Source of the DNA: Chalara sp. BL73
Lineage: Eukaryota; Ascomycota; Leotiomycetes; Helotiales
Assembly (NCBI GenBank): GCA_918026815.1
Contig: CAKJVC010000019.1
Span: forward strand, 1 to 64,000
DNA: 64,000 bases
Reading direction: 5' to 3'
Below, piece after piece: positions 11,986 to 64,000 of the stretch. Position 1 is the stretch's first letter. Each line of letters opens with the position of its first letter. Made by a program: the position numbers and the translations under genes. Under the pieces are notes generated by a model. It searched no databases. It worked only from the letters and a program-made list of their open reading frames with translations, and was not told where the DNA came from.

Positions 11986-11994
11986 TAATTCCGT

Positions 11995-20887: not shown

Positions 20888-20929
20888 ATTTTATTACTAC
20901 CGTAGCACAAATGTTACTATAAAGGACCG

Positions 20930-41407: not shown

Positions 41408-44400
41408 CGATTATACAAAATTTATTAATTTAAATATTATTTATAAGTTTAACAAAAATTATTATATTTATTTAAAATTTTAAAAGTTAAAATTTTTTAA
41501 TAGTTATATAGTTTAACAACGATTTTTTGCGTCGAAACTAAATTATAGCGCGAACTATTAATACTAAATTTAATTACATTTTTAAAAATAAAAACAAATT
41601 TCAAAAAAAAAAGCTTAATTTAAAATAAAAAAGTTTAAACTAAAAAAAAGCGTAATTAACAATATTAAAACTTACGTTTATAAAACTAACGATATACTAA
41701 TAAAAACAAAACTAAATAATAAAACGAATATTTAAATATAAAACTTTATTACAAAAAAGCTAAAATAAAGTTTATAAAAATTAAACTATTTACTAAAAAA
41801 CAAAACGTTAAATACTATATAACTTTAAATTTATATTATAACAAAAGTTTTAAAAACAAACGAAATATAGTATAATTAAAATATTACAGTTAAAAACAGT
41901 ATTTTTAAAAAAAAAATTTAAAAACAAGTTTAAAAACTAAAAAACTAACTTAAAACAAAAAGTTATAAAAGTTTAAAATTAAAACTTACTATAATAAATA
42001 CGCTAGTTAAATTTAATTATAGCTATAAAAGTTTATTAATAAAACTTATAACTTAAAAATCGATTTTAAAAATTTATATTAAAAAACTGTTATTGCTAAC
42101 AAATCGGTTTTGTTTTTAAAAACAATTTAAAATTTTAAAAAACTTTAAATAAAAAAATAAAGTATACATTTATTAAAAAAAGTATAATAAACTTAAAAAA
42201 CTAGTAATTTATTTTAGTATTAATTTTAATACAACTGTTAAACAAACATTTAAAAAAATATAATAAATTTAAAAAAGCTAGTAAATTGTAATAAAAATAC
42301 AGTTAACATTAATTTTAGTTTAATTAAGTTTTATTCGAAATATTCGAAAATTTATTTTTTACGCTAAAAATAGTTATTATATTAATAAACTGTTTAAAAT
42401 TTATAAATATTAAAACTACGTTTAATGTAAATGCCGAAATTAGTTTAATAACGCTAAAATTATAACAAAAATAAATATTTTATTATTCGAAATAATAATA
42501 TAGCTTTAAAAACTATTATAAAAATATATTAAAATTTATAAAATTTATAAATAATTTGTTAGTTACTATTAACAATACAACTATAAAAACTCGATTTTAT
42601 ATTATAACTTTTTAGTTTTAAACTAATTTTAAGTTTTTATTTATATGCAAAATTAAAATAGTATTTTATTATTTTAAAAAATTTTTAACAGTTTTATTTT
42701 TTGTTTTTATTCGAAACTTAAAAACTAGTTTAATTACTATAATAAAAATAAATACTAAAACAAAATTTATAAAAAACGCTATAATATATCGAATTTAAAA
42801 TACTATCGAAATAATTAAATTTAATAATAATAACGAATATATAACAAATTTAAAAAACTAAATATTTGTAATTAACTGTATAGTTATAAATAGTTTTTGT
42901 ATAATAAATGCAAAAATGTTTTAAAAAGTTTTAGTTTATTTTAATATTTAAAAACTTAAAAACAAATTTTATTTTTAAAAAAAAAAACGAATTTATAAAT
43001 AATTTGTAAAATATAAATATTTATTTAGTTTTAAATTTTGTAAAATAAAGTTTAACTTTAATTATATATTTTTTTTTACAAAAAAGCAACGTAATATTTT
43101 AATATAAATACTATATACAAAACAAAAAACAAAAAATTTATTTAATTAATAAAACTAACGAAATAAACAATATTTTAAAAACAAAAAAACTAGTATAAAA
43201 ATTTAAAATAAAAAACGTTTTTAAAAATAAACTAAAATATATTAAAAATATATTATTTTTAAGTTTTAAATATTTTAAAAAGTTAAAATTTACGTTTAAA
43301 AAACTAAAAATTTAAATATTAAAAATATACTACAATTTGCAAAAAAAAAAAAAAGTTTTAATTAATAAAAAAAGTTTTATATTCGATTAGTTTAAATACG
43401 AACAATTTTATAAAAATGTATTATTATTTATTATAATTAAAACAATAAAATATACAGTATAACAAACAGCAAGTTTTTTATTTCGAAAATATTAAAACTT
43501 TTAATAGTAAAATATTTAAAAAAACCAAATTGTAATATATTAAAATACTGTAATAAACTATATTAAAACTTATAGTTTTAATTGCTAAAAAAACTTAGTA
43601 ATTACAAATTAATTAATTTAGTAATATTTATAAATGCTATTATACTAAAAAATGCGAATTTATTTTTTTAATAAACGAATTTAATAAATTTGTAAAATAT
43701 TATATTGCGAACTTAATTAATTTATATTTTAAATATAATTAAATAACGTTGCATTTTATTTGTAAAAATATAACAGTATTTTTATATTATTCAATTGCTA
43801 AAATATATAATATTATTTTAAAACGTTACAAATTTAATTATAAAATGTATAAAAATTATAATACTTGTTTTAGCTATAATTTGTTTTAAAATAATTATAT
43901 TTTTTTAAACAATATAAACGTTAAAAACTTTATATAAATTATAACAAAAAAAATATTGCTCGAAATACAACAATATATTTTTAAATATATTTAAAATTTC
44001 GATAAAACGCTAAAACGATTAAACGTGTAAAAACTTTATAAGTTTTAAGTTTTAATTTGCAAAACAAGCTAAATATTGTAAATTTCGTATATAAACTTAA
44101 AAAAAAAAATTTTTATAAACAAAATCGTTAAAATTATAAATTAAAAATATTTAAAAATATTACAAAAACTAAAGTTTTTATAAATTTGTATATATATTTT
44201 CGAATTTAAATAAAATTTTTAGTATTATTATAATACTTATTTACAACTTAATAAAAAGTGTTATATAGTATTAAAATTTTAAAGTTTAAAAATAACTATA
44301 AAAACATTATAAAACGCTATAATTATAACGTTAGTATTTATTTAAATCGACTATAAACTAAATATCGAAAAAATTGTTGTAAAGTAAATACTAGTTTAAA

Positions 44401-47400
44401 TAATTATAACAGTTATTTAAACTAAAAAACTTTGTTTTAAATAAAATTAAATTTGCTAAATACAAAAACAAAACGTAGTTAAAAACCGAACGTAATTACA
44501 ACGTTATAAAACAAAAATACAAAAATATTTTTAAAATTTTAAAAAATTGCAAATTTAAATTATTACGATTTACTTTATATTAAAAACAAATACAAATATT
44601 AATAACTATTAGTTTATTTAAAGATAGTATAATATACAACTGTTAATACACTATTAAAAAACTTTTTATTTTAAAAATACCGATTTAAAAAGCGAAAATA
44701 TTAACAATTAAATATTAGCGAAATTAAAGTGTACAAAATATATTTTGTAAAAACAAAACAAAATATAAATTTTAAGTATAAAACGAATTTTAAATTGTAA
44801 AATAAAAAACTAATATTTTAAAAAAAAAAATAAAATAGTTTTTTACGCAACAAAAAATCGAAATCGAATTAAATTTAAAAAACTTAAATACAAAACATTT
44901 ATTTCTAGTTTTAAATACAGTAAAAATTTATTAAAATAATACGCTATTTAACAATATTTAAAAAGTTTAAAAATATAAATATTTTAAAATTTTACAAATT
45001 TAAAAAAAACATTAAAATATAACGTTTACAAACAAAAATTATAACGTTTATTAATAAAAAAAAATTTATTAAGTTTATAATCAATAATAAATAAATCCGA
45101 AATAAATTTTTTAAAATATATACTACTAAAACAGCTATAAAAAAAGCATTTATTATAAAATTTTTAACAATATTTTTAGTACAATTATTATAAAAATGTA
45201 AAAAACTATATTAAAACGTATAAAAAATATTAATTTAAAACAGCCGAAAAAAAATATATATATATATATATATTTTACAACGTTAAATAAACTAATAAAA
45301 AAAACAATTAATATTATTTATATATTTGTTTAAAAATAAAAAAATATTTAGTTAGCTAAAACAATATAAATAGCTAGCTGAAAACAAAACTATTACAAAT
45401 AAAAATATTTTTACAATTATACAGTTTATTTAAAAAACGTTATTTACTGTTATAAAATTTTTAAAAAATAGTAATTAATAATAAAAAATTTCAAAAAAAG
45501 TGCTAAAATTATTTTCGAAATAAAAATAAACAAAATTCAAATTTTTGCATATTATATTATAGTAAATAAAATAATTGAACGTAATTATAAATTTTTAAAA
45601 ACGTTTTGTTTAAACTAAAAAACTAAATTAACAATTTAACAATTGTTTTATTTGTAAAACGTACTATAGTTTACAAATTTATTAAATATATATTGTTTTA
45701 TATAGTTTATAAACAAAAGTTTATTTTGTTTATAAAATTACGATTTTTATTTAAAATTTTTTTACAAAAAATTATTAATTGTTTTAAGTTTATTAAACTA
45801 AAAACAAAACAATTTTAAATAAAAAAAGTCGAAAAACTAAATATAAAAAACTTGTTAACAGTAAAAAAAAAAAGTTTTTAATACTAAATATAAAATTAAA
45901 GTTAAACTGCTATAAAAAACAATATTGTATTTTGTTATAATTTTATTAAAAAATTAATATGTTTTTTAATAAAAGTTTAATTTTAAATAACTAAAACTAT
46001 ATTAAATATTTAGCGTTAACAATAATAAAAGTACTATAAATTTAAAAATTTAAATTTAATAAAGTAATTTTAAAAAACTTTTAAAAAACAAACTTAAACT
46101 ATTTTTTAACGAAAAGTTATTTTTATATATTGAATAATAAAGTAATAAATAGTAATTTAAACTTTAAACTTAATTTTAAAAAGTTTAAAAATATTAAAAA
46201 ACAAAAAAAAACAATCGACAATTTATAGTTCGGTTATTTTATTTAATAAACGCACAAAAAACTTATACGTTCGAATAAATTTTAAAAACTTTCGAATTAC
46301 TAAAATTTAAAGCGCTATTTATTAGTTTAAAAGCTTTTTATAATAAAAAAGGTTTTAACTAGTATTACAACAAGTTTTAAATTAAATTGTTAACAGTAAT
46401 TATTATTAGTTATTACGTTTTATTTACTAATTTAACAATAATTTTTTAACAATATTTTTATTTTGTTTTTGTAAACTAAAACGCGCACAATTTAGTATTT
46501 TATTATATAAATAAAAGTCGTAATTATAGTTTAAATATTTATAAATACAAAAAAAAAACTTTAATAATTATTGTACTAGCAAATAAAACGTAATTTTAAA
46601 AGTTTACAAAAAATAAAAAAAACAACAAGCTATTTTTAAATAAATTAATTAAATTAAACAATTTTAAAACTGTATATATTTCAAAATTATAAAAGTTTTA
46701 TAAAAAAACTTTTAAAATTATAGTAAAAAAATCAAAACAATTAAAAATAATTTTTTTTAGCTATTTTAAAAAAAAAATTATTAAAAAAAACTAAGCGAAA
46801 TACAGTTTTTTAGCAAACTTTTTAAGTTTAAAAAAAACGTTAAAACAGTTATTTTTAGTATTTAACTTAATTTTAAGCTTGTAAAATTAATAATTTAAAA
46901 AAACTTTAAACTTTAAAATAATTTTACAAGTTTTAGCAAATTTAATATACTTTAATAATTCGAAAATATTTTTATAATTTACAATTCAAATTTAAATTTA
47001 ATAGTTTTAGTAAATTTAATTTTAGTTTTAAAAAGTTTATTTCGATTTTAAAAGTTTTTATTTTGTAACGTTATTAATTAAAAAAAACGATAAAAAATTT
47101 AATAACGCTTAAAAATATTTAGTTACAACAAACTTAAACCGAATTTAGTTTATTGTTTTCGGAAATAAAATTAAAATTTATAAATAAACAATTTGAGTAT
47201 TAACAAATAAACAATATACAAAATATAAAAACTTAAAATTCAACTTTATAATAATAAAAAACGTAATATATTAAATATTTTAAAACTTGTTTAAAAAACA
47301 AGTTTTTAATAAATAAATTTTGTTTTGCTATTAAAAACAATTAAAACTTAATAAACAAAATAAGTTACAAATAAAAAATTTTGTTAACTAAAAACAATTG

Positions 47401-49436
47401 CGTAACGTTTAAGCCGAATAATTTTAATACTGCTATTAATAACAACGCGTTAAACTGTTTCGAATAAAATTTTTTATAATTAATTAGTAAAAATACAAAT
47501 AAAAATTGCTGTATTAAAAAACAAATAGTTTAACAAAAAATGCAATAAAAATAGCAAGTATTACTTTTCGAAAATTAAAACTTATATTAACAGTATTTTT
47601 AACTTAAAAAACAGTAAAAAACCCGAAAACTTTATAGTAACTATATTCGAAAAAAAAAATTAATATAAACAAAAATATACACGTTTTTAAAGTTAACCGG
47701 TACAGTTTAATTGCAAATAGTTATATTAAAATTAAATTTATTAAATTTTTTAAATTTACGTTTTAACACTATAATTTGCAATATTATAACAACGTTAAAA
47801 TTATAATATTATTAAACTGTAAAAATTTGTTATTTTGTTGTTTTGCTTTATTTTTAAATAATATTTTAGTTCGAAATATAGTTTAAAAATAAAAAAATAA
47901 AAATTGTATTTGTTATTTTATTTAAGTTTTAATTTTGTTTTTAATTGTATAATTGTTAAAAATTAAAAAATGCTAAAATAACAGTTAGCAATAAAAATTA
48001 TAAAACGATTTGTTTTATTTATAATTTTGCTAAAGTTTTAGTTTTGTTTTATTTATTACGATTTGTATATATTGAAAAGTTAAAAATATAACGTTAATAA
48101 ATACAATAGTTTTTATTTTAATATTTTATTTTAACATTTTTTAAAATTGTTCGAAAAAAAATAAAAAAAATATAACGTAATTGTTGTTTTGTTCAAGTTT
48201 TAATTTTATTTTTAATTATATAACTGTTAAAAGTAGTTAAAAGCTACAAACAACAATTAACAATAAAAATAAAAATAAAAAATTTAGTATATTTATAGTT
48301 TTTGCGTTACAGTTTCGTTAACGCAACTTTACTAACGCTTTATTTTATTTTTAATATATAGTCGCGAAATTTACTTTGCTCGATAATTTTTGTTTTTAAT
48401 ACTAATTAGTAATAAAAACAAATTAAAAAAACGATTTAGTTTTAATTTGTATCGACAGCAAATATAAAGTAAAAAATTAAATGTAAAATAAAAAATTAAG
48501 TGTAAAATAAAAATTTAAATATAAAAAAAAAAAAATTATAAAAAATTGTAAATTAAAAGTAAAAACAAAAACCGATTAAAAAATCGATTTACATAACAAC
48601 AACGTATTAAAAACGTTGCAATAAAAAACACTTTTTAATTTTTTATACTAATAGTTTATTTAATTTAATTGTATATTTAATACAGTTGAATATAAAAAAT
48701 CAAATAAAAATTGTATAAAAACTCGAATAAAAAGTAATTGTAAAAAAACTTATTAAAAATAAACAGTTAACAATTAATTTTTGCAAAAATTAAGCAGTTA
48801 AATATTATACAAATAATAAATTAAATTTTTATAATATTGCTCGAAAAAATTATAATTATTAAAAATCGAGTTGTTGTTGTTATTGTAAAGTTGTAAATTA
48901 AAAAAATTAAAAAAGTAATATAAAAAGTCGATATTTTATTGCTAGTTAAGCAAATTAATATTTATTTTTAAAAGTAAAAAGTAAATTATGTAATGCAATA
49001 ACAATTCATAAAGCAATATTAAAAAAAAACTCGATTTAACTAAACGCAAACTTTTACTAATTAGTGCTTAAAGCGAACACGTATAAAAAAAACGAATATA
49101 GTAAAAACGATTTTTTTATTTTATACTTTGTCACGTAATACTTATAAATAGTCAGTTATATGACTTAATAAGCATAAATTGTATATAATCTGCGTTTCCG
49201 GTAAAAAAAGCGCACTATTATTATACAACACACTTTTCTATTTTTCTATATTTTACACTACTATAAGCTATTAACGTTTATTTATTATATAAAGCTTAAG
49301 CTCGCCGGTGCTCTCCTTAGTATGCTGCAGCCACCGCTATCACGCCTATGAGTTTTGTGCTAAATCCTGTTGCTGTTCTTGCTTTTAGCATGTTCCTCGC
49401 CACAATATTATTACGCTTTTATATTTTTATTACAAA
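41408..49436. other. AT-rich hypermutated block, no gene
   Basis: About 8 kb with almost no G or C and no long open frame. Nearly every cytosine is preceded by A or G or lies in CpG. TpC and CpC outside CpG, and their complements GpA and GpG, are almost absent. Presumably old transposons mutated beyond recognition. A short less-mutated island at 49130-49430, with normal words such as CTCGCCGGTGCTCTCC, precedes the hAT coding start and may be its 5' untranslated part. Confidence 0.8.
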
Positions 49437-51160
49437 ATGTCTCAACAAACTCAATCGAATCGTATTATACGTTTACAAAATTCTTTGGATTTTGAAATTG
49501 ATATAAATACTTAACCTATTATTTTTAAAAAAAATTTATTTCAAAAATTTTAAATCCGCCACAAAAAAATATTAATATACCTCGAACTATTACTGTTAAG
49601 TGTTTACAAAAAAAATGCAAGTAAGTAGAACTATTTATAAAAACTAATTATTTACTAATTATATAATAGTAAAATTTAGGAAAATCAAAAAATAAATCAT
49701 TCAACAAGCAATTATATTGCACATTATAATAGCTCTCATAAATCTTTTAATATAAAAGCTATAATAAACGACTCTGAGTCCGGTAAGCTAAAACTTTTTT
49801 TAAAAAAAAAATATTAATAAAATTCTATAGATTTCGATATTAAAGAAAATAGTCAAACTTCGACTATATCCGACTATTTTAATAAAAATCGAGCTTTAAA
49901 AAAACTAAAATCTCCCGAATTTAATGTAGTACAATTCAAAAATTTACTTTTAAATTTTGCTATAACAAATAATATATTTTTTCGAGCTATTACAAGTAAT
50001 TCTTTTAAAAAATTATTAAATTAATTATTTTTGTAAGTTTTCATTTTTTTTTTTTTAAAAAAAAGCTATTATTAATATATTATAGTAATATACCGCTGCT
50101 GTATTATAAAGTTTTAAAAAACGATTTAAATTCTTTGTTTTTACTAAAACAAAATCTTATTAAAAACGAATTAAACGAACAAATAAACAGTAACGGTAGT
50201 TTTTTAATAACTTTAGATTTTTAAACAACTATTAATTAAGATTTTTATCTCGGAATTACTTTGTACGTATTTGTATTAATATTATTATTATTAAAAAATT
50301 TACTAACAATTTTTAAATATTTTATTAATAAAAACTTTGAATTAAAATCTTATTATTTAGCTATTCGAGAATTAAAAAAAAAACATTTTAATGTATATTT
50401 AAATAATATTTTATTACAAGTTTTAAAAAAATATAATATTGAGTATAATATTACAAAGTTTTTTTTTTTTTTTTGTTTTTTTTAATTTTTTACTTTTTAT
50501 TAATATATAAATTAATATTACTCGAAATAACGCTTTTTCGAACAATATTTTGTTGTTAGCTTTTAAACAACATTACAATAAAAAAGCTATTAAATTTCAA
50601 GGCGATATATATTGTGTCGCTTATATATTAAATTTTGTTGTACAAAATATTTTAAAAGTTATTATTAAAATTTTTTTTACCGATTTACAAAAAGTTTATA
50701 ATATAGAAAACAATAAAAATATCGAAAAAGATTTTTCTAGTAAGTTTTATTAACAACAAATTTAAAAAAAATATAATTAACTTAATAGAAATTTTAATTT
50801 AAAAAAAAGTCCGAAAAATTATTATCGGACTTAAATATAACTAAAAAAATCGTCGATTATTAAAAAAGCAAATTTTAGCTTAAAGAATAAAAAATTATAA
50901 TATTCCGCAATTAAGTAAAGTATTTTTTATTTTTTTTGCAACACAAAATTTGTTTATAATTAAAAAAACTAACTAATTTTTTTAAATCAAAAAACTTGAT
51001 AGTTTTCGACAGCTAATATGTTTTATAATTTTTTAAATTTATATAAGCTTATTAAATCGGTTATATTTATATTTAAATTAAAAGCATTTAAAAATAAAGC
51101 AATTGAATTATTAAATAAAAATATAAAATATTTAGAAAATTGTTTATAAATACTAACAGT
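49437..51160 (+). pseudogene. hAT transposase, 5' part
   Basis: ATG at 49437 (MSQQTQSNRIIRLQN). Further on, NSLFLLKQNLIKNELN, FLITLDF with a stop where tryptophan is expected, FINKNFELKSYYLAIRELKK and VLKKYNIEYNITKF show the RNase-H-like core of hAT transposases, followed by IKFQGDIYCVAYILNFVVQN (family pattern C-x-x-H-x-x-N-L-x-V). The histidine position reads tyrosine. Many stops and AT-driven substitutions; not functional. Confidence 0.75.
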
Positions 51161-51165
51161 ATTTG

Positions 51166-51368
51166 TGTAAAGTGCTGGAGTAGGGTGGCACAAGTCAACT
51201 GCAATTGATACAAAAACTAATCTTTACTTTCTTTACTACGTCCCGAGTCTTCTATTTATACCCTCCGAACTCCTGGCGACTTTCTACGTGTTTATACATG
51301 CCAAGCTTCAGTGCTTTTACCGAGCCCTTTTTAGTGCCTTTTAGCACGTGACATTCTGGCGCCTAATA
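51166..51368 (-). repeat. LTR, left copy (3' LTR of the element)
   Basis: Starts TGTAAAGTGC and ends CTAATA (CTGACA in the other copy). 203 bp. Differs from the right copy at 22 places by my hand count, all transitions. Confidence 0.9.
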
Positions 51369-51384
51369 TTGCTCCTTTTTTTAA
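51369..51384 (-). other. Polypurine tract
   Basis: On the minus strand AAAAAAAGGAGCAA abuts the LTR, the primer site for plus-strand DNA synthesis. It fixes the orientation of the element. Confidence 0.6.
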
Positions 51385-52329
51385 AACGTTGTTCCGACGT
51401 TTATACTAGTATTGTAAGCTTTAAACGCGAGTATAATAGCTTAGTATTGTAGCTAGCTTGTAAAGCAATCGAAAGTAAACCGAAAAAAGCTCGTAGCAAA
51501 CAACAATTTAAGTACAATAAAAAGCGGAAACTGAGTACAATAAAAACAATTAACAATACTTTTAAAATAAATAAGTAACAGCAATAATAATTTTTTAATT
51601 ATAAATAAAAATAAGTAATAGTCGAATTTCAGCCTATAAATAAGCGCTTTTTTTCTGTTTAGCTGCGTTTTTTTTTTTTTTTTACAACATTATTACTAAC
51701 ACTATTACTACTATTACTACTACTACTACTACTATATTTGTTTTGCGTTTCGCTTCCGTTTCGGCTTCGGCTACTTTCGTTTGCTTTTGCTGCGCGAAAA
51801 TTGCGAGCTTTAAACTCGAAGTCTGCTGCTTTTTCGATAAAAAAAGCAGTATTAAATGCTTTCGCTGCCGCGGCTTTAAAGCTAAATGTTTTTTTGTAAG
51901 TATTTTGTAGTTTTAATACTTTTTCGATTTAACTCCGGCTAGCTGCCGGCTGTTTTTCGTCGCTGTAGTAGTCGCTTCGCACGCTAGTTTCGTTTGCTTT
52001 AAAAACGTTCCGGTTTTAACAACTGCAAAAAACGCTTCCGTAAAACTATCGCCCGGGTTTTTTTCGGAAATTAAAAATCGTTCGAAAGTTTTGTTTTGTT
52101 AACAAGCTTATTTTAAAAAAGTAAAAGCGGTTTTTTTGGCTTTTTTTACAAAAGCCAAAAAAACCAATTTTCTTTTGCAAAAGTTAGTTAAATTGCAACA
52201 AGTAACAGTAAGTAATCGAACTTTTTTCGACTTGTAGCCGATTTAATTTAGCTAAACCGGCATCAACAAAAACAAAAACGAAAATAAAAATAACAAAAAT
52301 AAAAATAAAAATAAGTTTGTTTCCGAAAA

Positions 52330-52343
52330 AAAAAAAAGAAAAA

Positions 52344-52380
<37 letters not shown>

Positions 52381-52400
52381 AAAAAGTCGGAAAAAAAAAA
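52330..52400. repeat. Poly-A run
   Basis: Almost uninterrupted A for about 60 bases (52328-52380) inside the retrotransposon. Assembly length here may be unreliable. Confidence 0.8.
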
Positions 52401-53188: not shown

Positions 53189-54760
53189 AGTATTACCGGT
53201 GTTTGTATAAACAAAATTGTTGTATATAAATTCCGCTAAAACTAATTTCGAAATTTAGTTATTTTGCTTATAATTGCAATACGTTTTTAAATAAAATTCT
53301 AAAGTTTAATTTTGTTGTTTCGTTTAGCCGTTTGTTTGCGAGTAAAAAGCAGTAAAAAGTCGGCGGCGAATCTTAAAGTAATACATAAAGTTTTTTTAGA
53401 ATTTGTTTGTAAAAACAAACTTTTTATTAGTAGTAATTTTTTTTAAAAATCCGAAATTTTTATAAATGTAGTTTATAAACAGTTTCGCAAGCTTATAAGC
53501 TTAAATACTTTTCTGTACAGCTATATAGCGTGCTAGTTTAGTATATTTGTTAACTATAACTAATACAAAGTTATATATTTAGTTGTGCTTTTTGCTGAGC
53601 AGTAAATTTGTAATAAAATCTATAGTTATTTTTTTTTATAGTTTCAAAAAAATAAAAATCGAAACTAACTCGCTGTAAATTCAATGCTTTTTCGGTTTGC
53701 TTTTTTAGTATTTCGTGCACGTTTTAACATATTTTTTAATATTATTTTTTAAACTAAACTAATAGTACTTTCGGCTTATTAGCTCGTGCGTTTTACGCAC
53801 GCTAAAATAGCCGGCAAGCTTTTTATTATAATGCACGTGAATTATTTCTGCGCGTATTAACTTTTCGTTAAAAACATATACAGCTTTTTTATAACGGAAT
53901 AAGCTATTTTTGTAACTTATGCTTTATAGCTTTTTCGCTTCGGTTTAGCTTCGCTTTGTAGTTTTTTCAGTAATTTTTCGAACTAAAAAAAAATTAGTTT
54001 TTTGCAGTTTCGTTAAAACGTTTTAAATCGGCTTCGTTACTTTATTATATACTGTTTCAGTCGATAACAATATAATCGCTACTTTTCGTAGCACGCGCTG
54101 TTTACAACTAGCTATACTAACAATAAGCTTAAATTTAACTTTTCGGATTACGCTACAATACTTTTTAGCTTATAACTTTGTTATATTTGTTTTTAGCTTC
54201 GGCATTTTACCGGTTCGAAAACGTTTATTTCTCAGAATAAACGCGACTTTACACAAGCGCGCTTAACTCGTATTATTTAAAAGTACACTTTTTAAATAGT
54301 TTTTTAAAGCATAAAACAATTTTGCTACACGCAGTTTGTTATACAAAGTCAAAAAAAACGTTTTTGCTTTTTTTTCGCTTCGCTTTCGATTCGGCGTTAA
54401 CTTTTTATAGTCCGGCTTTTGTAAAAGTCCGTTTGCAAAATTAGTTTTGCTTAGTTTAAACTTAATTACAAAATTAAACTCGTTTAAGTTTTCGGCTTAT
54501 TTCGTTTAACAGTTTGTAAGCTTTTTTTTTGTTATAAAATATTTTAAATTGTTGTAATCGATACGAACTGTAACGGTATTAACATTGCTTCGAAAGTATT
54601 GTTTTTATTGTCGAAAAGCATAAACTATAATTATTAACTTTATATTGTAAGTATTATATCGAAACTTAACAAAAGTAAGTTTTTTTAAGTAAAAAGCGAT
54701 AAAGTACTATTTAGCTTTTTTTTTTTTTTTGAACAGCTGCAAAAAAATCCCGGCTATAGC

Positions 54761-55290
54761 TTATTTAAAGCTATTTGTTTTTACTTTAATTCTACGTTGC
54801 GAATTAAAATGTTTAAACAAAAGTGTTTTTCGGAATTTCGATTTCAAAACTTTAAAGCTCGCTAGCGCTTCGAGCTTTACTCGGAAAAAAACTGTAAGCT
54901 TTTTTATTTTTTTAAAAAAGTTTATTAGCAGTATATAAATACGAACGTATTTTTTAATAAATCGTTTATAAAAATTAATAAACTTTAAAAACACTTAAAT
55001 ATTTTTATAGCACGTAAACACAAACTATTCTTTTACGGTTTTTACGCGAAAAAAATCTATTTTTATGCTTTTTAGCTTTACAATAAAACCTAGAAACTTA
55101 ATAGTATTTGTATTAAAACAGCACTTAAAAAAGTTTGCGTATAGCTTATACTTTTATAGCTTTTCGAAAACTTTATAAACTGCTTTCGTATAGTTTTCGA
55201 TTTTCTTTAAAAAAATAAGTATATTATTAAAGTAAATTACGCAAATCACATCGACAAAGCCGACTAGCGCTTAGTTGATATAAGCTTAAA
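54761..55290 (-). pseudogene. Retrotransposon reverse transcriptase and RNase H region
   Basis: Reading leftward: the catalytic box appears as IYFNNILIF (55237-55214), where family members have Tyr-x-Asp-Asp. Both aspartates are now asparagine codons (55223-55228). Next come YKLYANFFKC and FLGFIVK, then FLKFINFYKRFIKKY, the thumb/connection block, and the RNase H start near 54770. Inactive enzyme. Confidence 0.8.
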
Positions 55291-57367
55291 ACATAGTTAA
55301 AACGTTCGAAAATTTAAAAAAAAAAACTAAATACTCGAAATAGCTGTATCGAGTACAAAACGCCGTTTTTTATTTGTCGTTTTTTTTAATGCGTATTCTG
55401 TAGTAAACATTAGTAAAATTTATTTTTATAAATCGTTTTAAGCAACGAAGCTTATTTAGTATTTTACTAATTAAAAATAACAGCGTTTTATTTTTAATCG
55501 TAACTTTATTTAATTTTTTGTAGTTTACGCATAGTTTAAAAAAACCGTTTTTTTTAAATACGAATAAAATCAGCGCTTTTGCAAAACTAGTAAATCGGCG
55601 GATTTACTTTTTTAATAAAAAAAATTCGAAATATTTTTTTAGTATTGTTAATTTTTTTTTTAAAAACAAGTAAACAAAGTTTTATAGTAGTACTGTTTCC
55701 GGCTTGAAATTAATTCGGTATTTTATCGAATAATGCTTTAGTAAAATGCTTGCGAAAACGTTGTTAAATATATTAGTATAATTTGTATACTTAAAAAAAA
55801 GCAATATTAAGCTTTTTTTTATTCGCTGTAAAACTAAACAATAAATTATTTAGTTTTTGCTAGTTTTGCAAAAGTTTTTAATATTAAATACTTTAATTTA
55901 AAACATTTTAAAAAAGTATTGTTAGCTTTTTGTAAAAAAACGTATAACTAAATCGATTTGTTTTAGCTAAAAGTACTTTAATATAAAAAAAACGTTTAGT
56001 ATATTAAAGTCGTACGCTACAAAGTCGTATCGGTAAAGTTTTGTAGTGTTTTCGAAATCAGTAATTGCTAGCTCGATATTGTTAATTCCGTAAATAACAA
56101 CTTTTTTTTTTTTTACTGTAACTAGTTGGAATTAAGCGTTTTTCGATTTTTAATTATGCTATATAGCTAAAAACTGTTTTACATAGTTTTGCTTTGTATT
56201 GCTGTCGATAAACGCTTGTATTTTTTTCGTTTTTTTTTCGGCATTAAATACTTGTACCGAAATAACTATTCGTTTTTTTTTTGCGTTTTTGCTTGTTTTT
56301 TTTAGTAAAAAAAATATTAAAAACGAGCTTTTTCGTTTTTTTGTTTAAGTTTTAAGCAATTAGTAAAAATATAACTTTTTTTTTTGCAATTGTAGCATTT
56401 TATATTAAAGTATTTAAAAAATAAATAACTTTTTTTATTGTACCGATAATATCGAATAATGCTACGTTTATTTTTTGTGCTAGTACCGATAAAAATACGA
56501 TTCGTTTTACTTAAAATGCTTTTTGTGTTTTTTTAAGTATTTTTTGCTGCAAAACGTTAAACCGGCGTTTTTAATTCAGCTGTAAACGTAAAAGCATCGG
56601 CGCTTTTCCGCAGGTTTTTTGTAGCTTTTTTATTTAAGCTACTAAAATTGCTAATAATTTTTTTTGCGCTTTTTATTTTTCGGGCCAAAAATATTAGCGC
56701 TTTCCGGCTTTTAAAGAAATTTTTATAGCGCAATATACTTGTTTTTAAGTTATTTTTAAGTTTTTCGAATAGCGTACGTTAACAGTACGTATTATTTACG
56801 ATTTCTAGCTTTTTTTCGAGCGTTTTTAAATATATTGCAAAAGTTTTTACTAACTGGTTTTTTTGCTGCTTAGCGTTTTTTAGCTTGCTAGCCGCGTTTA
56901 GTTTTCGATTGTTTTTATTCGTAAAGCAATTATAAAAAAAAGCTATAAACTTTTTTTATATAGTATTGCCGATTTTTATTTTCGACTTATAACCGTTTTA
57001 TTTCCGTTTTGTTATTACATCGAAAGCGAAAATACAATAGTTTATTTTTCGCGTATTATTAAAAAAATAGTAATTTTCGTTTGCTTTAAAACAGCGTTTT
57101 GCAATTAATACAAAAAACTGCATTTTTAATAAAGTTTTTTTTTTAAAATTAAATAGATTTTTAAGTTTTAATACCGGTTACTAAAAAAATAGCTAGCGCT
57201 TAAGCTTTTTTTTAAACTTTGTTTTGTTCGAAAGCGTTTTACCGATATATCGGCGGCGTTTCGCTTTAGTTTTTTTTTCGGCTAGTTTTTAGCTTTTTTC
57301 GAAGTTATTTAAACTATACAACTGTTTTTTTAAAATCTTTTTTTGTTTTTTGACTTTTTTAAGTTTT

Positions 57368-57690
57368 TTAGTAGTGTTGCTTGCTTTTGTAAGTTTTTGC
57401 TTTTTGCGTTGCTTTGCTTAACGTATTTTTTTTTGAAGTTTTATTACAATAAATAACTTGCGAGTTAATGTATTTTGTGTGTTTATAACAACGTCGTTTT
57501 TTTGCCGTTTTTAAAGCGTTTCGTTTTCGATTTTTTCCGAGTATTAACTTTTTTTTGATTTTTTGCGCATACAAGTTGTACTAAGTAAATCAAAACTCAA
57601 GTTTTTTGTAGAAAACCGAGTAATAAATCAACGAGCTATAAAAGCAAATTTAGCTGTTTTTTTTTTTCTTTTCGACATTATAACGTTTTA
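57368..57690 (-). pseudogene. Possible gag-side remnant next to the 5' LTR
   Basis: ATG near 57676 (MSKRKKKTAKF) shortly after the LTR, followed by stops and then a basic frame at 57574-57368 with RRCYKHTKYINSQ. The lone Cys/His pattern could be a decayed zinc knuckle. Position favours gag, but homology is not clear. Confidence 0.4.
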
Positions 57691-57744
57691 GGTGCGATAC
57701 TTTTCTGACTTGTGCCGAACTACATTTCGTAAGAAAAATTAAAA

Positions 57745-57947
57745 TGTAAAGTGCTAGAGTAAAGTAGCACAAGTCAACTGCAATTAATACAAAAACTAAT
57801 CTTTACTTTTTTTACTACGTCTCGAGTTTTTTACTTATACCTTCCGAACCCCTGGCGACTTTTTACGTGCCTATACATGCCAAGCTTCAGTGCTTTTACC
57901 GAGCCCCTCTCAGTGCCCTTTAGCACGTGACATCCTGGCGCCTGACA
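57745..57947 (-). repeat. LTR, right copy (5' LTR of the element)
   Basis: 203 bp, TGTAAAGTGC to CTGACA, followed by the target duplication ATTTG. Confidence 0.9.
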
Positions 57948-57952
57948 ATTTG

Positions 57953-58860
57953 TAAAAACTACTACAAAATTACAAGCGGAAAATTACTTTACAGTTTACT
58001 ATATTATTCCGAATATTTATAATATTTATTATAAGTTTAAAAAATTAAAAAAAGAATTTAAAAATGTTAGTACTTTTTTTAATATAATTATACTAAACTA
58101 ACATTTTAATAAGATTTAATTTTAACAAACGCTTTAAATCGCGAAATTGCGAAATTATCGAAATATTATTTTAAAAAAAGAAATATTCATTTTAATAATA
58201 AAGCTATTTATTTAGCTTTAATATTAAACTTTAGAATTAAAAAAGAAAGTTTAAGCAATATCGAATTAAATTCCGGTCAAATTAGCGATATTGTTATTCG
58301 CTTAAAAATTGATTATAATAAGTAAATTTATAAATTTATAATTTTTAACTAGTAACTAATTTTTAATAGTTATAAAACGAAGTATTTAAAATATTTATTT
58401 TTAAACGAAAATATCGAAACACTTAGTATTAATAATAGTTTTAACAACGAATTAAATATTTATTTACAAAATAACGAAAAAAAAGTTCAAAAAGAATTAT
58501 ATTTATATTTTAAAGAAAAAAGAGCTACTAAAAATGTAAGTTAACTTTTATTTTATTTTATTAATAAATTAATTAATTTTTATAAGTTAAACTTTTACAA
58601 TATTGAATATTTAATAAAAATAAATATCCGGTTTTGTTTTTAATAGTTAAAAAATATTTACAAATTCCGGCTACAAGTACGTTTTCAAAAAGATTTTTTT
58701 TACACAGTGTTTTAATTATTAACAAATTAAGAAATCGACTAAATAAAAATACTTTTAAAAAAATTATTTGTTTAAAAAATTAAAGAATTATTAATAGCGA
58801 AAAAAATATTAAAAAAGAAAACAAAAAAAAAGAATTTAAAAAAAAAAACATTTTTGTAAT
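57953..58860 (+). pseudogene. hAT transposase, 3' part with dimerisation domain
   Basis: Directly continues the 5' part: the sequence left of the retrotransposon ends in LENCL..ILTVF and the right part resumes with KTTTKLQ, ENYFTVYYIIPNIYNIYYKF. Near 58660-58790 the hATC dimerisation motif is clear: IPATSTFSKRFF, RNRLNKNTFKKII, CLKN. Several in-frame stops. Confidence 0.75.
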
Positions 58861-59166
58861 TTAAATACTAAAAAAGTTTTACAATTTTGTATAATTAATA
58901 GTAATAAAATTTTTATATTAATTATACTATAAAAGTTTTTAATATTAATAACTGCTGTATTGATACATTTAATAAAAGTTAATAATTTTAAATAAAATAT
59001 TAATTTATTATTGTTTAAAAAAAAGTTAAGTAGTAATTTGAATATTTTAAGTAGTGAAATTGACTATTCAAATTCAACTTAAACCTTTTACTACTCAAAC
59101 TCAACTCAACTCATTGAGTAATACTCAATTACTAATTGAGTAGTTGAGTATTTTTTAGTCACACTG

Positions 59167-61340
59167 GTAAACGCAAAAAATGCTAAATTTCGAACGTTCG
59201 AAAATTGTGCTTAATTCGGGTTTTTTGCTATAATTCGCGCTTTTTAGTATTAAGCAAATTTTTTTAATTTTATAAATGTATTCGAATCAAATTAAAGTAT
59301 AATTAAAATTTAAAACAACTTATAAAAGTAGTTTAATTTATAAGTTTGCTATTTCGAGCGATTTTATAAATCGATATACTCGAAAAACGATTTAATAACG
59401 TACTGTAAAAAAGCCGTAAACCGAAAATAAAAGTAATAAACAATAATATAAAAACAAGTTTAAACGCTGTTTTATTTTTATTTTTGTAGCGCAATTTTAT
59501 TACTTGTAAAAAGCTCGTTTCGGCTTAGTAAATAATAATAAAAGTTATTTTATTGTATATTAACTGTATTAAATGTAAAAAAAACAAAAGCAACGTTAAA
59601 ATTAAAAAATCGAGTTTAAATTTATAAAGTATTGTTTCGATTTTTTTAAAATAAACGTATGTCGGTTAAATAGTTACTTTAACGAACAATTTAAAGCAAA
59701 ATATAATTCGAATTGTTAACTAACGTTTTTACAAGTTTTTTACAAATAAAATTTTTAGTTTTTAAATGTTTAAAAATATAAAACTAAACCGATTTGCTAG
59801 TTTTTCGCTGTATTAAAATATTAAAAATTAAAAACCGCTAGCAAAAATACTAGCTAAATTTGCTATTTTTATAGTATAGTAAATGCCGCGTATATTTCGC
59901 TAAGTTAATTTTACGGATTCGTAAAACGTTAAACTTTGTATAGCCGGTAAAATTAAAAATTAAAAAAACTATAATAAACAGTTTATTGTTTTTAGCTGTT
60001 TTATTTAAAAAAGTTGTATAAATAAAAAATGCTAGTAGTTTGTAATTTAATAAAATTTAAACTGTACGCTCGGCCGTAAAGTTTGCTAATATTAAATTAA
60101 TTTTTGTAGCGTTAATACCGATATTAAAAACTATTAATTAAAAATTTAAAAAAAGCAAGTTGTTGTTTGTAATAAACTATATCGAATTCGGATTTAAATT
60201 ACTATTAAAGTTATTATTGTTAATAATAAAAAAAATAAAAAATAAAACATTACTGTTTTTCGAAAGCGTATTAATACAAATTGTTAAAATTGTAATATTT
60301 TTGTAATTTAAATAGTAAGTTTATAAAAACTAAAGCTAAGTTAAAACTCGGTTTTTACAAACTCGAAAATTTTTTGTATATTAACAAAAGTATCGAAAAT
60401 CGGCTTATAAAACATTATTGAACAGCCGTAAAAGCATTATATTTAATTTAGCAAACAAATTAAATAATACATTAATTGTTTTAACAATGTTTTGTGTAAA
60501 GTTTACGTAATAGCTCGAATAGTAATATTAATAACTGCAAACGTAATAAACAATTATTTAAACGTATAAACGAGCTATAATTATTTTTTTAATTTAACTT
60601 AAAGCTAACAAATAAAAAAAAACTTTTTCGAGATTTATATTATTATTTACATTTATTAAAAAAAACAACTAGTTGTTTTTGTTTTGTAAAAAACACTGCC
60701 GACAAAATTCGGCTTGTAAATGCATTTTAAACTAGCGTTTATTATACCGACTATAAATTTTTATTTTTATAGTATTTATAACTGCGTAAAAGTTTTAAAT
60801 ATATTGCTATTGCTTTGCAAATATAAAATTTAGCTTTGCTGCAAATTGTTAAAAAAGTTGTTTAATAGTAATTTCGAGTAAAAAAAAAAGCGGCAGTATT
60901 GTTTTTTAAAAAAAAAAAAAGCCGAAAAGTTTTTAAGTTTGTAATAAGTATTTATAGACGTATTGCAACGTTTACAAATCGATTAACACGTTTTCGAAAC
61001 TATATATTAAAGTCGACAAGTTGTAAAACTCGTTTTTGCTGTAATCGAATTCAAGTTTTGCGACATCGAAAATAAATAGCTAAAAGTCTGCTAGTAAAAT
61101 TAGTAAAATTTTAAAGAAATAAAAAAAAATTCACGTGTATTAGCACACGCAAAACAACATTTAATAGCTATTACAAATAAAAAAAGTAAAGTAATTAATT
61201 AATTAATTAATATTTTTAATATTTTGCTACAGTTACAAACTTTAGAGTCAAAAAACGTGTATTGTAGCTAACGTACAAACTTGTAAATAGCTCGTGTTTA
61301 AAAACACTTTCGCAAAGTTTTTAAAGTTACTTAATTTCAA
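59167..61340. other. AT-rich hypermutated sequence, no gene
   Basis: Same composition as 41408-49436. No recognisable element. Confidence 0.6.
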
Positions 61341-61690
61341 TTCTATTATTAGAACTTGTAAATAGTTTAAAAGCTTGTAAGTATAGTACTTTAAAAACTT
61401 GTAAAATCTTGTAAGTATAGTACTTTAAAAGCTTGTAAAAGCTTGTAAGTACTTTAAAAGCCTGTAAATTGAAAACTAAGTTTTTAAGTTTTTTTATTTC
61501 GCTGCGTTTAGCGTTTACAGCTAACGCACTATACAGTTTGTAAACGGCCTGTAAAAAAGCCTGTAAAAAAGTTAAAAGCTTGTAAAAAAGTCAATTTTGG
61601 AAGCAAAGCCTTTAAGCTTTTTTATTTCGCTGCGCCTAGCGTTCGCAGCTAACGTACTGACCTGTAAACGACCCGTGCAAAAGACCTGTC
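61341..61690. repeat. Cluster of CTTGTAA / CCTGTAAA repeats, possible MULE-type end
   Basis: Direct repeats such as GTAAGTATAGTACTTTAAAA (twice) and many AGCTTGTAAA, GCCTGTAAAAAA and CCTGTAAACG units. The unit resembles the CAGCCTGTAAAC subterminal repeats of the element at 2050-4599. An imperfect copy of TCGCTGCGTTTAGCGTTTAC recurs within it. Confidence 0.5.
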
Positions 61691-62699
61691 ACCTGACTAC
61701 TCTTTTTTAAGTCACATGATTCGTTTTGAGCCCTCAACCACCAATTTTCGGCATCACGTGCCCCCACACACTGGGTCCTGACTTTAGTAAGAAAGCAAGC
61801 TTTCTAATAATATTATGCTTTTTGCAATAAAGCTTAAAATAAGTTAAAGAATAACTATTGTAGTTATTAAAAACAAAAAGCTGATATTTATTTTTTATAC
61901 AACTTTTTATTTACAACTTTTTGTATACTAAGTAAAATTTTAATTTTAATTTAATATTTGTTTATTTGTTGCTTAGTTATTTGCAGTTATTGCAATTAGT
62001 TAATCGTGCGGCAATTAACTGTTTTTATACTACAACAACAAATAAGTTTTGTTAACAACAATTATATATAACAGCAGTGTATAGCCGTACGAAATAATGT
62101 TTTTAAATAACTGTAATTTATTTCGCCGCTTAAAACTTGTTACGACTATTTCGGACAAAATCCGGCTTATTACAAAATTTTGTTTTATTAAAATCGTAAA
62201 CTTTTTTTATATCCTATATTTGCTAATTGTGTTTTGTACAAGAAACTACGCGTTATACACGTCCGGATTTTTACATTAAGCTCTTTAATAGTTAATTTTT
62301 CGATTAAAACACATTCGGAGTTTTAATTCTTGTTGTACAAAGTTCGAAATCCTGTTTTTGCTAACGTGTTCCGTGTTTTGCTTTGCAAATAATCGATTTG
62401 TTATATTTTTTATAATACTTATTTCAGAAAAAAACAATCGCGAATTTAAGTCAATAATATATTGTACAATAACTTGCTTTTTTAGGTCGGTAAGTTTCGA
62501 ATTTTAAAAGTAGTATCGCGCTTTAAAAGTATTTTATAATATTGATTAAAAAGTATTAAACAAAACACATTAAAAATCCGCGCCACGCGGCTTAAAAGCA
62601 AATAAAAACTTGTACAAAACGTATTTACAGCAAAAAAAAAATCAGATTTTTTATATGTGCGAGTTATTTGTAGTAGAAAATAAATGCTATTCAAAGTGA
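61691..62699. other. Mixed spacer: short normal-composition segment then AT-rich sequence
   Basis: 61700-61785 has ordinary composition (ACGTGCCCCCACACACTGGG) and stands out as unmutated. The rest is AT-rich with short frames of no recognised family. Confidence 0.4.
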
Positions 62700-62719
62700 T
62701 ATTGTACAATGCCAAGAAA

Positions 62720-62763
62720 AAGTGACGGGTCACTTGTGTTGCTAGGTCGCTTATGAACTACGT
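62720..62763 (-). repeat. End related to the 2443-2862 MITE
   Basis: Reverse complement reads TAACGTAGTTCATAAGCG, matching the MITE end TAACGTAGTTCACAAGCG with one difference. The partner end was not found. Confidence 0.5.
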
Positions 62764-62769
62764 TATAAG

Positions 62770-63392
62770 TATTATTTTTTATTAAAATAAACCATATATT
62801 TAGCTTTATGTCTTAGTACGTAAATATTAAAGTATTTTTAATCTCTTTTAAATTCTTAGCTTTAAAATATAATAAAAGAAGTTCTTAAATTACTTTAAGT
62901 CTTCCTTTATTGGTGTTACGGTCTTATCAGCCTACAACTGATATAGATAGAAGATCTTGGTCCGAGGGTTGTTGGTCTGGGAAAAAGTAGGTATACCACA
63001 TATAAGGATTAAATCTCAATAACAAGTATACTGTGAAAATACTATTTAAGTTAAACACGAAGCTTTTATTTACAGAAAAGCTATTTATTTATATAAATTC
63101 CTTGTAGTTTAAATTATTGCACTCGGTATAATTTATAAATTGTAAATTATAGCATGATTTATGATTTATTACGTAATTTTTACTTTAAAAGTTTTTTGTA
63201 TAAACTAAGTTTACCGAGCTTTAAGTTTCTAAAATACAAGCTTGTTAGCGCTGCGCGTAACACTATTTCTTTTTTAAACTAGCGTGTTTACATATTTAAG
63301 TATATTAAAAAAAAATATCGTAAAAAGCTGCATAGCCGCTTTTTTTTTTTATTATAACAACTAAGCGTATAGCCGATTACTTTAAGTCCGAA
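62770..63392. other. Spacer with a normal-composition segment
   Basis: 62910-63050 is ordinary in composition (starting near TGTTACGGTCTTATC), perhaps part of an LTR, but no partner or duplication is seen. Confidence 0.35.
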
Positions 63393-64000
63393 ATGTCGCG
63401 AAAAAACATTAAAAAAAAAGATTTAAAAAAACGAATAATTTTAATTAGCGAAAAAATGATTTCGTATATTGCTTGCGAAAAAAAACATGTTTAAAATCGA
63501 CATTTTATAAAATGTATAAAAGCAAAAAAGTTAACTCGTTGTGCTAAATATATACGTCGTAGTTTTTCTAGTTGTAATGCTAGTAGTTTTGCTTTTAAAA
63601 ACTAGAAGTCGTTAAACAAAGCGAAAAAAAAGTTAAAAAAAAACAAAACTAAAACCGAAAAAAAAGCCGAAACACTTGCCGAAGCTATTACGAAGATTTC
63701 TGCACAAATTAAACGGATTCGTACGCAAAAAAAGTTTTTTCGTGCTCGTAAAAAAAAAAAGTTGCGACGAAATTTCGCATTTTTAAATAAGCTCGATGTT
63801 TTAAAAAAAAAAAAGCAAACAGCTTAAAAAGCTACACAAACTAAGTTCGAAAATCTCTTGAAAAATGTATATAACGTATTCGGTACACTTAAAGTTTTGC
63901 CGAGCACTTTTTTTGCTAATTACGATTTTTTTTTTTTTAAAAACGTTTTTTAAGCTTTTTATTTAAAGTTTTTAAATATTAACAGTAAAACTTTTTAAAC
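63393..64000 (+). pseudogene. Transposon-associated coiled-coil protein remnant, runs off the window
   Basis: ATG at 63393 (MSRKNIKKKDLKKRI), then CIKAKKLTRCAKYIRRSFSSC and the charged helix KAETLAEAITKISAQIKRI followed by RTQKKFFRARKKKKLRRNF and a LNKLDVL segment. This A-x-x-K-I/L-x-x-L/I-R-x-Q-K-x-F-L pattern is common in small fungal proteins encoded within or beside transposons. At least two in-frame stops, one where tryptophan is expected. The window ends before any partner gene. Confidence 0.5.

What the first reader, a model, noticed from the sequence alone, without database searches (positions are those of the whole stretch)
41408..64000. Hypermutated block with a non-classical context: C lost after pyrimidine (YpC), not before A
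Classical repeat-induced point mutation turns CpA into TpA. In this block CpA/TpG is common, whereas TpC and CpC (and complements GpA, GpG) outside CpG are almost absent. Nearly every GA sits in CGA and nearly every TC in TCG. The two LTRs at 51166-51368 and 57745-57947 give an independent test. By hand I count 22 differences, all transitions. 19 fit C-to-T after T or C (or G-to-A before A or G), and only 6 fit CpA/TpG. This points to a cytosine-modifying process reading the 5' neighbour, unlike the Neurospora rule.
Basis: partly seen in the sequence, partly recalled or inferred. Interest (0 to 1): 0.9.

Follow-up and report, generated by a model that had tools for sequence, protein, structure and literature searches.

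The report
Fungal repeat hypermutation reading preceding pyrimidine
This fungus has riddled its repeated DNA with C-to-T changes where the C follows a T or C and is not followed by G, which differs from the textbook fungal rule (C before A) yet passes the standard tests for it.

Summary
The window lies in a 58.7 Mb ascomycete genome, probably Helotiales near Bisporella. The AT-rich block is made of dispersed repeats. Against the least mutated natural copy of the 51166-57947 retrotransposon, 19 other copies or pieces show 17,501 C-to-T/G-to-A changes and 392 transversions. Hit rates are YpCpH 78%, RpCpH 20%, YpCpG 25%, RpCpG 6%; a following A gives no advantage (YCA 74%, YCT 82%). Five more repeat families show YpCpH highest. 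Hits cluster by strand and fade over the outer few hundred bases. That is how repeat-induced point mutation (RIP) behaves, but with another target. Two RID-class methyltransferase genes and a DNMT5-like gene are present; no DIM-2/Masc2-type gene was detected. Standard RIP indices pass this block as ordinary RIP because they read only the 3' neighbour. Best reading: a RIP-like, RID-class process with YpCpH specificity. The enzyme is inferred; a deaminase is the main rival. The sharp border at 41,408 is not clean evidence: its left side recurs unmutated on another contig.

The parts
1..41408 (.). Gene-bearing DNA of ordinary composition, used as internal control: GC 44%, YpC/RpC ratio 1.00. At least 38401-41407 recurs on contig C160 (99%, no substitution in the stretch compared)
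41409..49410 (.). Degenerate copy of a dispersed repeat of about 8 kb (family 2); 41409-44599 is 12.5% GC and, pooled with four other copies against L039, shows the YpCpH rule
49405..51165 (.). Another dispersed repeat with further copies in the genome; composition depleted of YpC (ratio 0.62)
51166..57947 (-). Mutated LTR retrotransposon (family 1). Reverse-transcriptase matches in other copies lie on the strand opposite to the window + strand. 20 copies or large pieces scored in the genome, GC 0.205-0.450
51166..51368 (.). Left LTR
57745..57947 (.). Right LTR; 22 transitions against the left LTR, 19 of 22 at YpC
57948..64000 (.). Rest of the AT-rich, YpC-depleted block (ratio 0.39); contains a stretch 76% similar over 313 bases to a DDE_1 transposase copy (L054); not dissected further

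Best explanation
A homology-triggered mutator of the RIP type, carried out by a RID-class (Masc1/RID) cytosine methyltransferase, turns C into T in repeated DNA wherever the C follows a pyrimidine and is not followed by G (YpCpH). Shown: the C-to-T spectrum, the YpCpH rule in six repeat families, its absence from ordinary DNA, strand clustering, fading at element ends, and two RID-class genes with open frames. Inferred: that RID-class enzymes are the mutator, that homology triggers it, that it acts before meiosis as in Neurospora, and that the changed context comes from a changed RID. Candidate causes are the RID orthologue on C164, which carries V after PCQYFS and A after EQT where most relatives have P and F, and the divergent second RID-class gene on C79.
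For: Family 1, 19 copies or pieces against natural copy L018: YCH 11,720/15,087, RCH 3,707/18,174, YCG 1,717/6,792, RCG 357/5,782 (sums); YCH is the highest class on both strands in each of the 19. A logistic fit on seven copies puts the main weight on -1 pyrimidine and +1 not G, with A, C and T at +1 nearly alike. Family 2 and four further clusters have YCH highest. A 300-base repeat, compared between the window and two other copies, gives 60 of 76 transitions at YCH. With L018 as reference, same-strand hits cluster within 200 bp (z 5.9 to 8.7 in five of six copies, 2.3 in L020) and opposite-strand hits hardly do (z -1.0 to 2.2). In 18 of 18 ends of nine full-length copies the outer 100 bp are hit less than the 700-1200 bp bin. 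Left of L021, DNA of GC .53-.60 with YpC about equal to RpC adjoins a mutated piece. Of 20 stretches drawn at random, 19 have GC 0.44 or more and YpC/RpC 0.77-1.30; the other (GC 0.35, 0.68) overlaps a DDE_1 match. RID-class genes on C79 and C164.
Against: No experiment links RID to these changes. The literature ties RID-class enzymes to CpA or CpT. Many transposon copies are open with identical match scores, and at least 3 kb of the window next to the block recurs on C160 without substitutions in the part compared: if that is a true duplication and not a contig overlap or second haplotype, it escaped. So the process may be rare or inactive now. Copies share ancestry, so counts are cells, not independent events. 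L018 is itself partly mutated (1,502 reverse transitions). In the reverse comparison (L018 hit, other copy as reference) strand clustering is uneven: same-strand z 0.1 to 6.2, opposite-strand z up to 4.3 (with L016). Family 2 has its reference at only 29% GC. The DDE_1 cluster carries 151 transversions beside 682 transitions, and one DDE_1 pair (L054/L055) shows no clear rule.
Confidence: 0.68

Rival explanations
1. A DNA cytidine deaminase of the APOBEC/AID sort, or a fungal OTT_1508-type deaminase, edits exposed single strands of repeats at YpC, and RID-class genes only help find the repeats or are not involved.
For: YpC is the classical deaminase context and strand-clustered runs are typical of deaminases (both recalled). 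The genome has 11 OTT_1508_deam matches, 10 of 11 without a stop inside (frames of 77 to 518 aa), and 8 PF00383 matches, 7 of 8 without a stop.
Against: PF00383 members are mostly ordinary nucleotide enzymes (recalled), and no genome with classical RIP was searched for comparison. Strong avoidance of a following G is not a known deaminase hallmark (recalled). APOBEC_N and other deaminase families were not searched. Editing of reverse-transcribed cDNA alone does not fit: L018 is hit mainly on the window minus strand and L012 mainly on the plus strand, and a DNA-transposon family is hit too.
Confidence: 0.16
2. Classical CpA-directed RIP, seen through a biased reference or skewed composition.
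For: The block passes stringent RIPper thresholds (product 1.37, substrate 0.58, composite 0.79; thresholds in PMC7882544, passages).
Against: YCA 0.74 is below YCT 0.82, and RCA is only 0.20 (sums). The LTR pair gives 6 of 22 at CpA. In a simulation on native DNA a CpA rule leaves YpC/RpC at 0.99, while a YCH rule at p 0.9 lowers it to 0.27 and still passes the indices; the block has 0.34.
Confidence: 0.03
3. A general mutational bias such as ultraviolet damage at dipyrimidines, or relaxed repair in heterochromatin.
For: C-to-T at YpC is also the ultraviolet signature (recalled). One clean border, at 41,408, could be a contig junction or rearrangement rather than a limit of the process, since the left side recurs on C160.
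Against: Ultraviolet dimers would also raise C before a pyrimidine and would not spare YCG; here RCT and RCC (0.18-0.25) are close to RCA (0.19-0.21). Ordinary DNA beside L021 keeps YpC/RpC near 1, 19 of 20 random stretches are normal, and strand clusters and end fading fit repeat-directed action.
Confidence: 0.08
4. Two layers: CpG methylation kept by DNMT5 shields CpG from the mutator, and the mutator itself reads only the 5' pyrimidine.
For: A DNMT5-like gene is present: methylase part close to Cryptococcus DNMT5, SNF2 domain (E 2.1e-11), weak RING match below its cut-off. The CpG effect and the 5' effect are roughly multiplicative by my arithmetic.
Against: Long-kept 5mC at CpG should itself decay to TpG, yet CpG is at 2.9 times expectation in the block. 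No methylation data.
Confidence: 0.05

Closest known systems
RIP of Neurospora, Zymoseptoria and most Pezizomycotina
   Same: C-to-T in repeats, strand-biased clusters (PMC7296669, passages), RID-class gene present
   Different: Target there is CpA: 240 of 242 mutations in a Zymoseptoria duplication (PMC10294615, passage). Here the 5' pyrimidine decides and a 3' A gives no advantage
CpT/CpA signatures in Botrytis, Sclerotinia and Magnaporthe
   Same: Two are Helotiales relatives with RID; CpT hit as well as CpA (PMC4352252, passages)
   Different: Only 3' neighbours are tabulated in the passages read; whether a 5' pyrimidine effect hides there is unknown
TpCpG mutation in Microbotryum transposons
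   Same: A 5' neighbour matters (TpC)
   Different: Needs a following G, which is what this fungus avoids; a Dnmt1 class IIA gene and no RID listed (PMC4352252, passages)
APOBEC/AID hypermutation
   Same: YpC context and strand-coordinated runs (recalled)
   Different: CpG avoidance, action on repeats, end fading; APOBEC families were not searched

Membership tests
RIP (broad sense) | C:G to T:A transitions, almost no transversions | tested here: met
   17,501 C-to-T/G-to-A, 1,502 reverse transitions (reference mutated), 392 transversions over 19 copies or pieces. More transversions in the DDE_1 cluster, 151 beside 682 transitions
RIP (broad sense) | Repeated DNA of unrelated element classes hit, ordinary DNA spared | tested here: met
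   Six families incl. LTR, other RT and DDE_1 elements; 19 of 20 random stretches normal, drawn from 41 contigs that had come up in searches (30.0 of 58.7 Mb); ordinary DNA left of L021
RIP (broad sense) | Triggered by duplication, stopping where homology ends | tested here: inconclusive
   End fading in 18 of 18 ends supports it; the border at 41,408 is not clean, and a near-identical stretch on C160 is unmutated
RIP (broad sense) | Strand-clustered hits | tested here: met
   clearer with L018 as reference than in the reverse comparison
RIP (broad sense) | RID-class methyltransferase gene present and intact | tested here: met
   C79 and C164 genes, EQT motif, spliced frames open; start codon of the C164 gene not determined
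RIP (broad sense) | Depends on RID/DIM-2 and occurs before meiosis | not testable with these tools
   needs crosses and deletions
Classical CpA RIP | Preference for a 3' A | tested here: not met
   YCA 3,013/4,081 against YCT 5,495/6,689 and YCC 3,212/4,317; RCA 1,065/5,389 (sums)
Microbotryum-type TpCpG mutation | Following G required | tested here: not met
   TCG 847/3,764 against TCH 7,086/9,171 (sums)
APOBEC/AID deaminase editing | Responsible deaminase gene identified | tested here: inconclusive
   PF00383 and OTT_1508 matches only, no link to repeats
Editing of retroelement cDNA | Hits on one strand of retroelements only | tested here: not met
   Opposite strand preferences of L018 and L012; DDE_1 cluster also hit

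The most novel reading that the evidence does not exclude
The mutator is not RID at all but a fungal DNA deaminase (or the rare C79 RID-class paralogue turned into one) that reads the 5' pyrimidine, so repeat-directed hypermutation has been built twice in fungi; and because the standard indices cannot tell the two rules apart, part of what is published as CpA RIP in Helotiales and other groups is really YpC.
Probability: 0.2. Interest if true: 0.92.

Novelty: new variant of a known kind. Interest (0 to 1): 0.76.

Why it matters
RIP is described by what follows the C: a 2025 survey of 1,239 fungal species concludes that RIP-like defences share a preference for CpA (PMC12543289, sections 9 and 10 read). 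This genome is a clear exception. The common tools count only the 3' neighbour (PMC2621366, passages), so such exceptions can pass unseen. It makes a testable question: what sets the target of a RID-class enzyme? Natural variation in context across related Helotiales would allow the residues to be mapped.

Tried and rejected
First alignment of family 1 mixed strands: half the copies were aligned in the wrong orientation; discarded and redone. In some searches the script's word 'sense' means the window + strand; the reverse transcriptase lies on the other strand.

Pooled counts over the pairs of short RT/DDE_1 stretches (180 pairs) include very distant pairs where the signal is diluted; the cluster summary with pairs of at least 80% identity was used instead. 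It holds 7 clusters. L041/L042 has only 2 differences, L054/L055 shows no clear rule; the other five have YCH highest (the DDE_1 cluster L045 etc., L056/L057, L061 etc., L064 etc., L074 etc.). I count four further families, leaving out L056/L057 as too small. A check against families 1 and 2 found no match for L064 etc. and L074 etc., and only 67% over 156-165 bases to family 1 for four of the five L061 etc. stretches, so they are separate families at that sensitivity.

I had taken the border at 41,408 as a limit of the process against single-copy DNA. A check showed that the left side recurs on C160 and that C160 goes on with ordinary DNA, so the border may be a rearrangement, a second haplotype or an assembly junction. 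The claim was withdrawn and the confidence lowered slightly (0.70 to 0.68), the deaminase and general-bias rivals raised by 0.01 each.

Classical CpA RIP, ultraviolet-type mutation, cDNA editing and a mitochondrial or low-complexity origin were considered and set aside on the evidence given. A sequencing artefact was considered (inference only): it would not give graded decay from 45% to 20% GC between copies or end fading.

Species: only one protein (96% identical to Bisporella sp. PMI_857) and RID relatives point to Helotiales. Seven literature searches found no 5'-pyrimidine rule in RIP in their listings; the library lacks preprints and most subscription papers, so absence in print is not shown. 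The basidiomycete trinucleotide paper (PMC3318451) was not held.
Full report
What was claimed.

Check in the window. The block is 20.8% GC against 44.0% before it, and the change is abrupt at about 41,400. By trinucleotide, the block holds ACA 739, ACT 923, GCA 354 and GCT 608, but TCA 137, TCT 133, CCA 33 and CCT 49; with a following G the pyrimidine effect is gone from the counts (TCG 547, CCG 202, ACG 423, GCG 251). Within the 199 aligned bases the excess at YpC over conserved C is significant (odds ratio 18, P 5e-6).

What the block is. The window is bases 1-64000 of contig C16 (139 kb) in a 58.66 Mb genome of 199 contigs. The stretch 51166-57947 has 20 scored copies or large pieces in the genome, itself included, the others 80-90% identical, with GC from 0.205 to 0.450. 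Reverse-transcriptase matches lie inside several of these copies, on the strand opposite to the window + strand. The stretch 41409-49410 belongs to a second family and 49405-51165 to a third; 57948-64000 contains a relative of a DDE_1 transposase copy. A gene in the unmutated part (17234-17986, an AA9 monooxygenase) is 96% identical to a protein of Bisporella sp. PMI_857, placed in Helotiales, Leotiomycetes. This is one protein and gives kinship, not species.

The rule. I compared 19 copies or pieces with copy L018, the natural copy of highest GC, one by one, without making a consensus. There are 12,282 C-to-T and 5,219 G-to-A changes, 1,502 reverse transitions (mostly sites where L018 itself was hit, by inference) and 392 transversions. 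Summed: YCH 11,720/15,087 (78%), RCH 3,707/18,174 (20%), YCG 1,717/6,792 (25%), RCG 357/5,782 (6%). Among YCH sites the third base matters little: YCA 74%, YCC 74%, YCT 82%. A logistic fit on seven of the copies gives +1.4 to +1.6 for a pyrimidine and -1.4 to -1.6 for a purine at -1, -1.9 for G at +1 against +0.5 to +0.7 for A, C and T, and a weaker preference for T (+0.7) over G (-0.6) at +2. YCH is the highest class on both strands in each of the 19.

Other families. Family 2 (window copy and four others, pooled, against L039): TCA .83, TCC .70, TCT .84, CCA .73, CCC .50 (9/18), CCT .72 against ACA .27, ACC .15, ACT .29, GCA .33, GCC .18, GCT .34 and CpG .16-.36. The reference there is only 29% GC, so absolute rates are less sure. 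From 40 short stretches that I picked from the RT and DDE_1 lists, intact and broken mixed, seven clusters have pairs of at least 80% identity. The three RT clusters give YCH .27.60 and .28 against RCH .05.14 and .06; the larger DDE_1 cluster gives YCH .28, RCH .06, YCG .14, RCG 0/121, with 151 transversions beside 682 transitions. One DDE_1 pair (L054/L055) shows no clear rule, one pair (L041/L042) has two differences, and one pair (L056/L057) agrees but is small. Pairs within a cluster are not independent. A 300-base repeat at 20587-20887, in ordinary DNA of the window, compared with the two copies that lay in loci already held, gives 32 of 38 and 28 of 38 transitions at YCH.

How it behaves. 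(a) Strands: with L018 as reference, hits on one strand cluster within 200 bp (z 5.9 to 8.7 in five of six copies, 2.3 in L020), while hits on opposite strands are near expectation (z -1.0 to 2.2). In the reverse comparison, hits in L018, the picture is uneven: same-strand z 1.0, 6.2, 5.7, 1.8, 2.2 and 0.1, opposite-strand z 2.3, 4.3, -0.3, -1.2, 1.5 and -0.7. Part of the clustering may come from the end fading described next. L018 was hit mainly on the window minus strand (177/363 YCH against 16/234 on the plus strand with L012 as outgroup; 115/280 against 47/461 with L016), L012 mainly on the plus strand (534/758 against 77/257). (b) Ends: in nine full-length copies, 18 of 18 ends are hit less in the outer 100 bp (0 to .65) than at 700-1200 bp (.38 to .98). 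(c) Borders: the left flank of L021, at GC .53-.60 with YpC about equal to RpC, is unaffected right up to the mutated piece; its right flank is ordinary for 250 bases and then AT-rich, and the flanks of L009, L012 and L016 are mixed. Copy number of these flanks was not tested. The border at 41,408 looked like a second clean case, but 38401-41400 recurs on C160 at 99%, and a longer look shows 1,546 aligned columns with no substitution up to exactly 41407, after which C160 continues with DNA of GC .39-.48 and no element. This may be an overlap of contigs, a second haplotype or a duplication. (d) Elsewhere: of 20 random 1.5 kb stretches, drawn from 41 contigs of known length, 19 are normal in GC and YpC/RpC; one is intermediate and overlaps a DDE_1 match. 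Twenty more were requested but not obtained. Strand-biased clusters are a known mark of RIP: in Neurospora 91.9% of mutation clusters are one-stranded (PMC7296669, passage).

Why it would be missed. RIP is usually scored by TpA/ApT and (CpA+TpG)/(ApC+GpT), or by CpN-to-TpN tables, all of which look only at the 3' base (PMC2621366, passages; thresholds in PMC7882544, passages). The block scores 1.37 and 0.58, composite 0.79, a clear 'RIP'. Applying a YCH rule to native window DNA gives the same kind of score at p 0.9 (1.66 and 0.65; at p 0.6 the substrate index, 0.83, does not yet pass the stringent threshold) although A is not preferred, because the rule spares ApC and removes TCA and CCA. A CpA rule leaves the YpC/RpC ratio at 0.99, while the YCH rule lowers it to 0.27. 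The block has 0.34 and L018 0.92. The YpC/RpC ratio is therefore a simple test that separates the two rules.

Machinery. Four PF00145 matches fall in three genes. Those on C79 and C164 have the RID-class EQT motif and open frames across introns that I placed by eye; the RID/Masc1 class is that of PMC4352252 (passages), while the EQT motif as its mark is recalled. The C164 gene is closest to Leotiomycete RID proteins, 55-63% identical in the methylase domain to the Sclerotinia, Chlorociboria and Coleophoma proteins. It has V after PCQYFS and A after EQT; among 28 relatives (all 25 and 3 of 6) the first position is P in 21 and V in one, the second F in 25 and A in one, and none has both. The C79 gene has six detected relatives, the best 33% identical; both protein searches scored only the candidates sharing most words. 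The third gene, on C82, matches entries 7r76/7t02 at E 2.4e-35 (molecule named Rad8 in the listing; that this is Cryptococcus DNMT5 is recalled) and continues into an SNF2 domain and a weak RING match. DIM-2 and Masc2 join a methylase to BAH domains (PMC5148876, passage); the genome's two BAH matches lie on C9 and C10, other contigs than the methylase matches, so none was detected. Deaminase-family genes exist (8 PF00383 and 11 OTT_1508 matches) but nothing ties them to repeats.

Interpretation. The simplest account is a RIP-type process whose enzyme, a RID-class methyltransferase, has shifted from reading the 3' A to reading the 5' pyrimidine while still refusing a 3' G. The context, strand and end facts are shown; the trigger, the enzyme, the timing and the cause of the shift are inferred. 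A deaminase remains possible because YpC and strand-run patterns are also its mark.

Against what is known. Published contexts are CpA (Neurospora, Leptosphaeria, Zymoseptoria), CpA plus CpT (Botrytis, Sclerotinia, Magnaporthe), CpG plus CpA (Tuber) and TpCpG (Microbotryum) (passages). In Phialocephala, another Helotiales fungus, CpA was inferred from dinucleotide counts (PMC5148876, passages), and for Hymenoscyphus the passages show only indices (PMC8254937). In the nematode-trapping M. haptotylum CpA was reported less preferred (PMC3828140, passages). None of the passages read reports YpCpH. I therefore rate it a new variant of a known kind, with membership in RIP proper unproven until RID dependence and timing are tested.

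Noticed in passing
window 38401-41407 and C160:6728-9745: The ordinary DNA left of the block recurs on C160 without substitutions in the 1.5 kb compared and ends exactly at 41407, where C160 goes on without the element: haplotype, duplication or assembly join.
   Followed up: partly
window 20587-20887: A 300-base repeat with about 36 listed matches (84-98%) in the genome; the window copy sits in ordinary DNA, and two other copies differ from it mostly at YpCpH.
   Followed up: partly
contigs C22, C24, C27, C80, C92, C98: Many transposon copies with open frames and identical match scores, pointing to recent spread that the mutation process has not stopped.
   Followed up: no
C79:18167-19105 (L001): A divergent second RID-class methyltransferase gene with few detected relatives and an altered last motif (IGNVYPS instead of IGNAVPP).
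   Followed up: partly
C164 gene (L003): RID orthologue with unusual residues next to both catalytic motifs (V after PCQYFS, A after EQT).
   Followed up: partly
outer 100 bp of family-1 copies: LTR ends are hit little even where the interior is over 90% mutated at target sites (e.g. L010: 0.22 and 0.11).
   Followed up: yes
Eleven OTT_1508-type deaminase matches, 10 of 11 without a stop inside; role unknown.
   Followed up: no
C7:549230, C10:49846, C33:105405, C90:60488: Four DDE_1 matches with the same score and two TAG codons each, as if an already interrupted copy (or one with an intron) had multiplied.
   Followed up: no
window 2069-2223 and 2976-3129: Inverted pair of 155 bp, 96% identical, in the gene-bearing part; possibly a small mobile element.
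   Followed up: no
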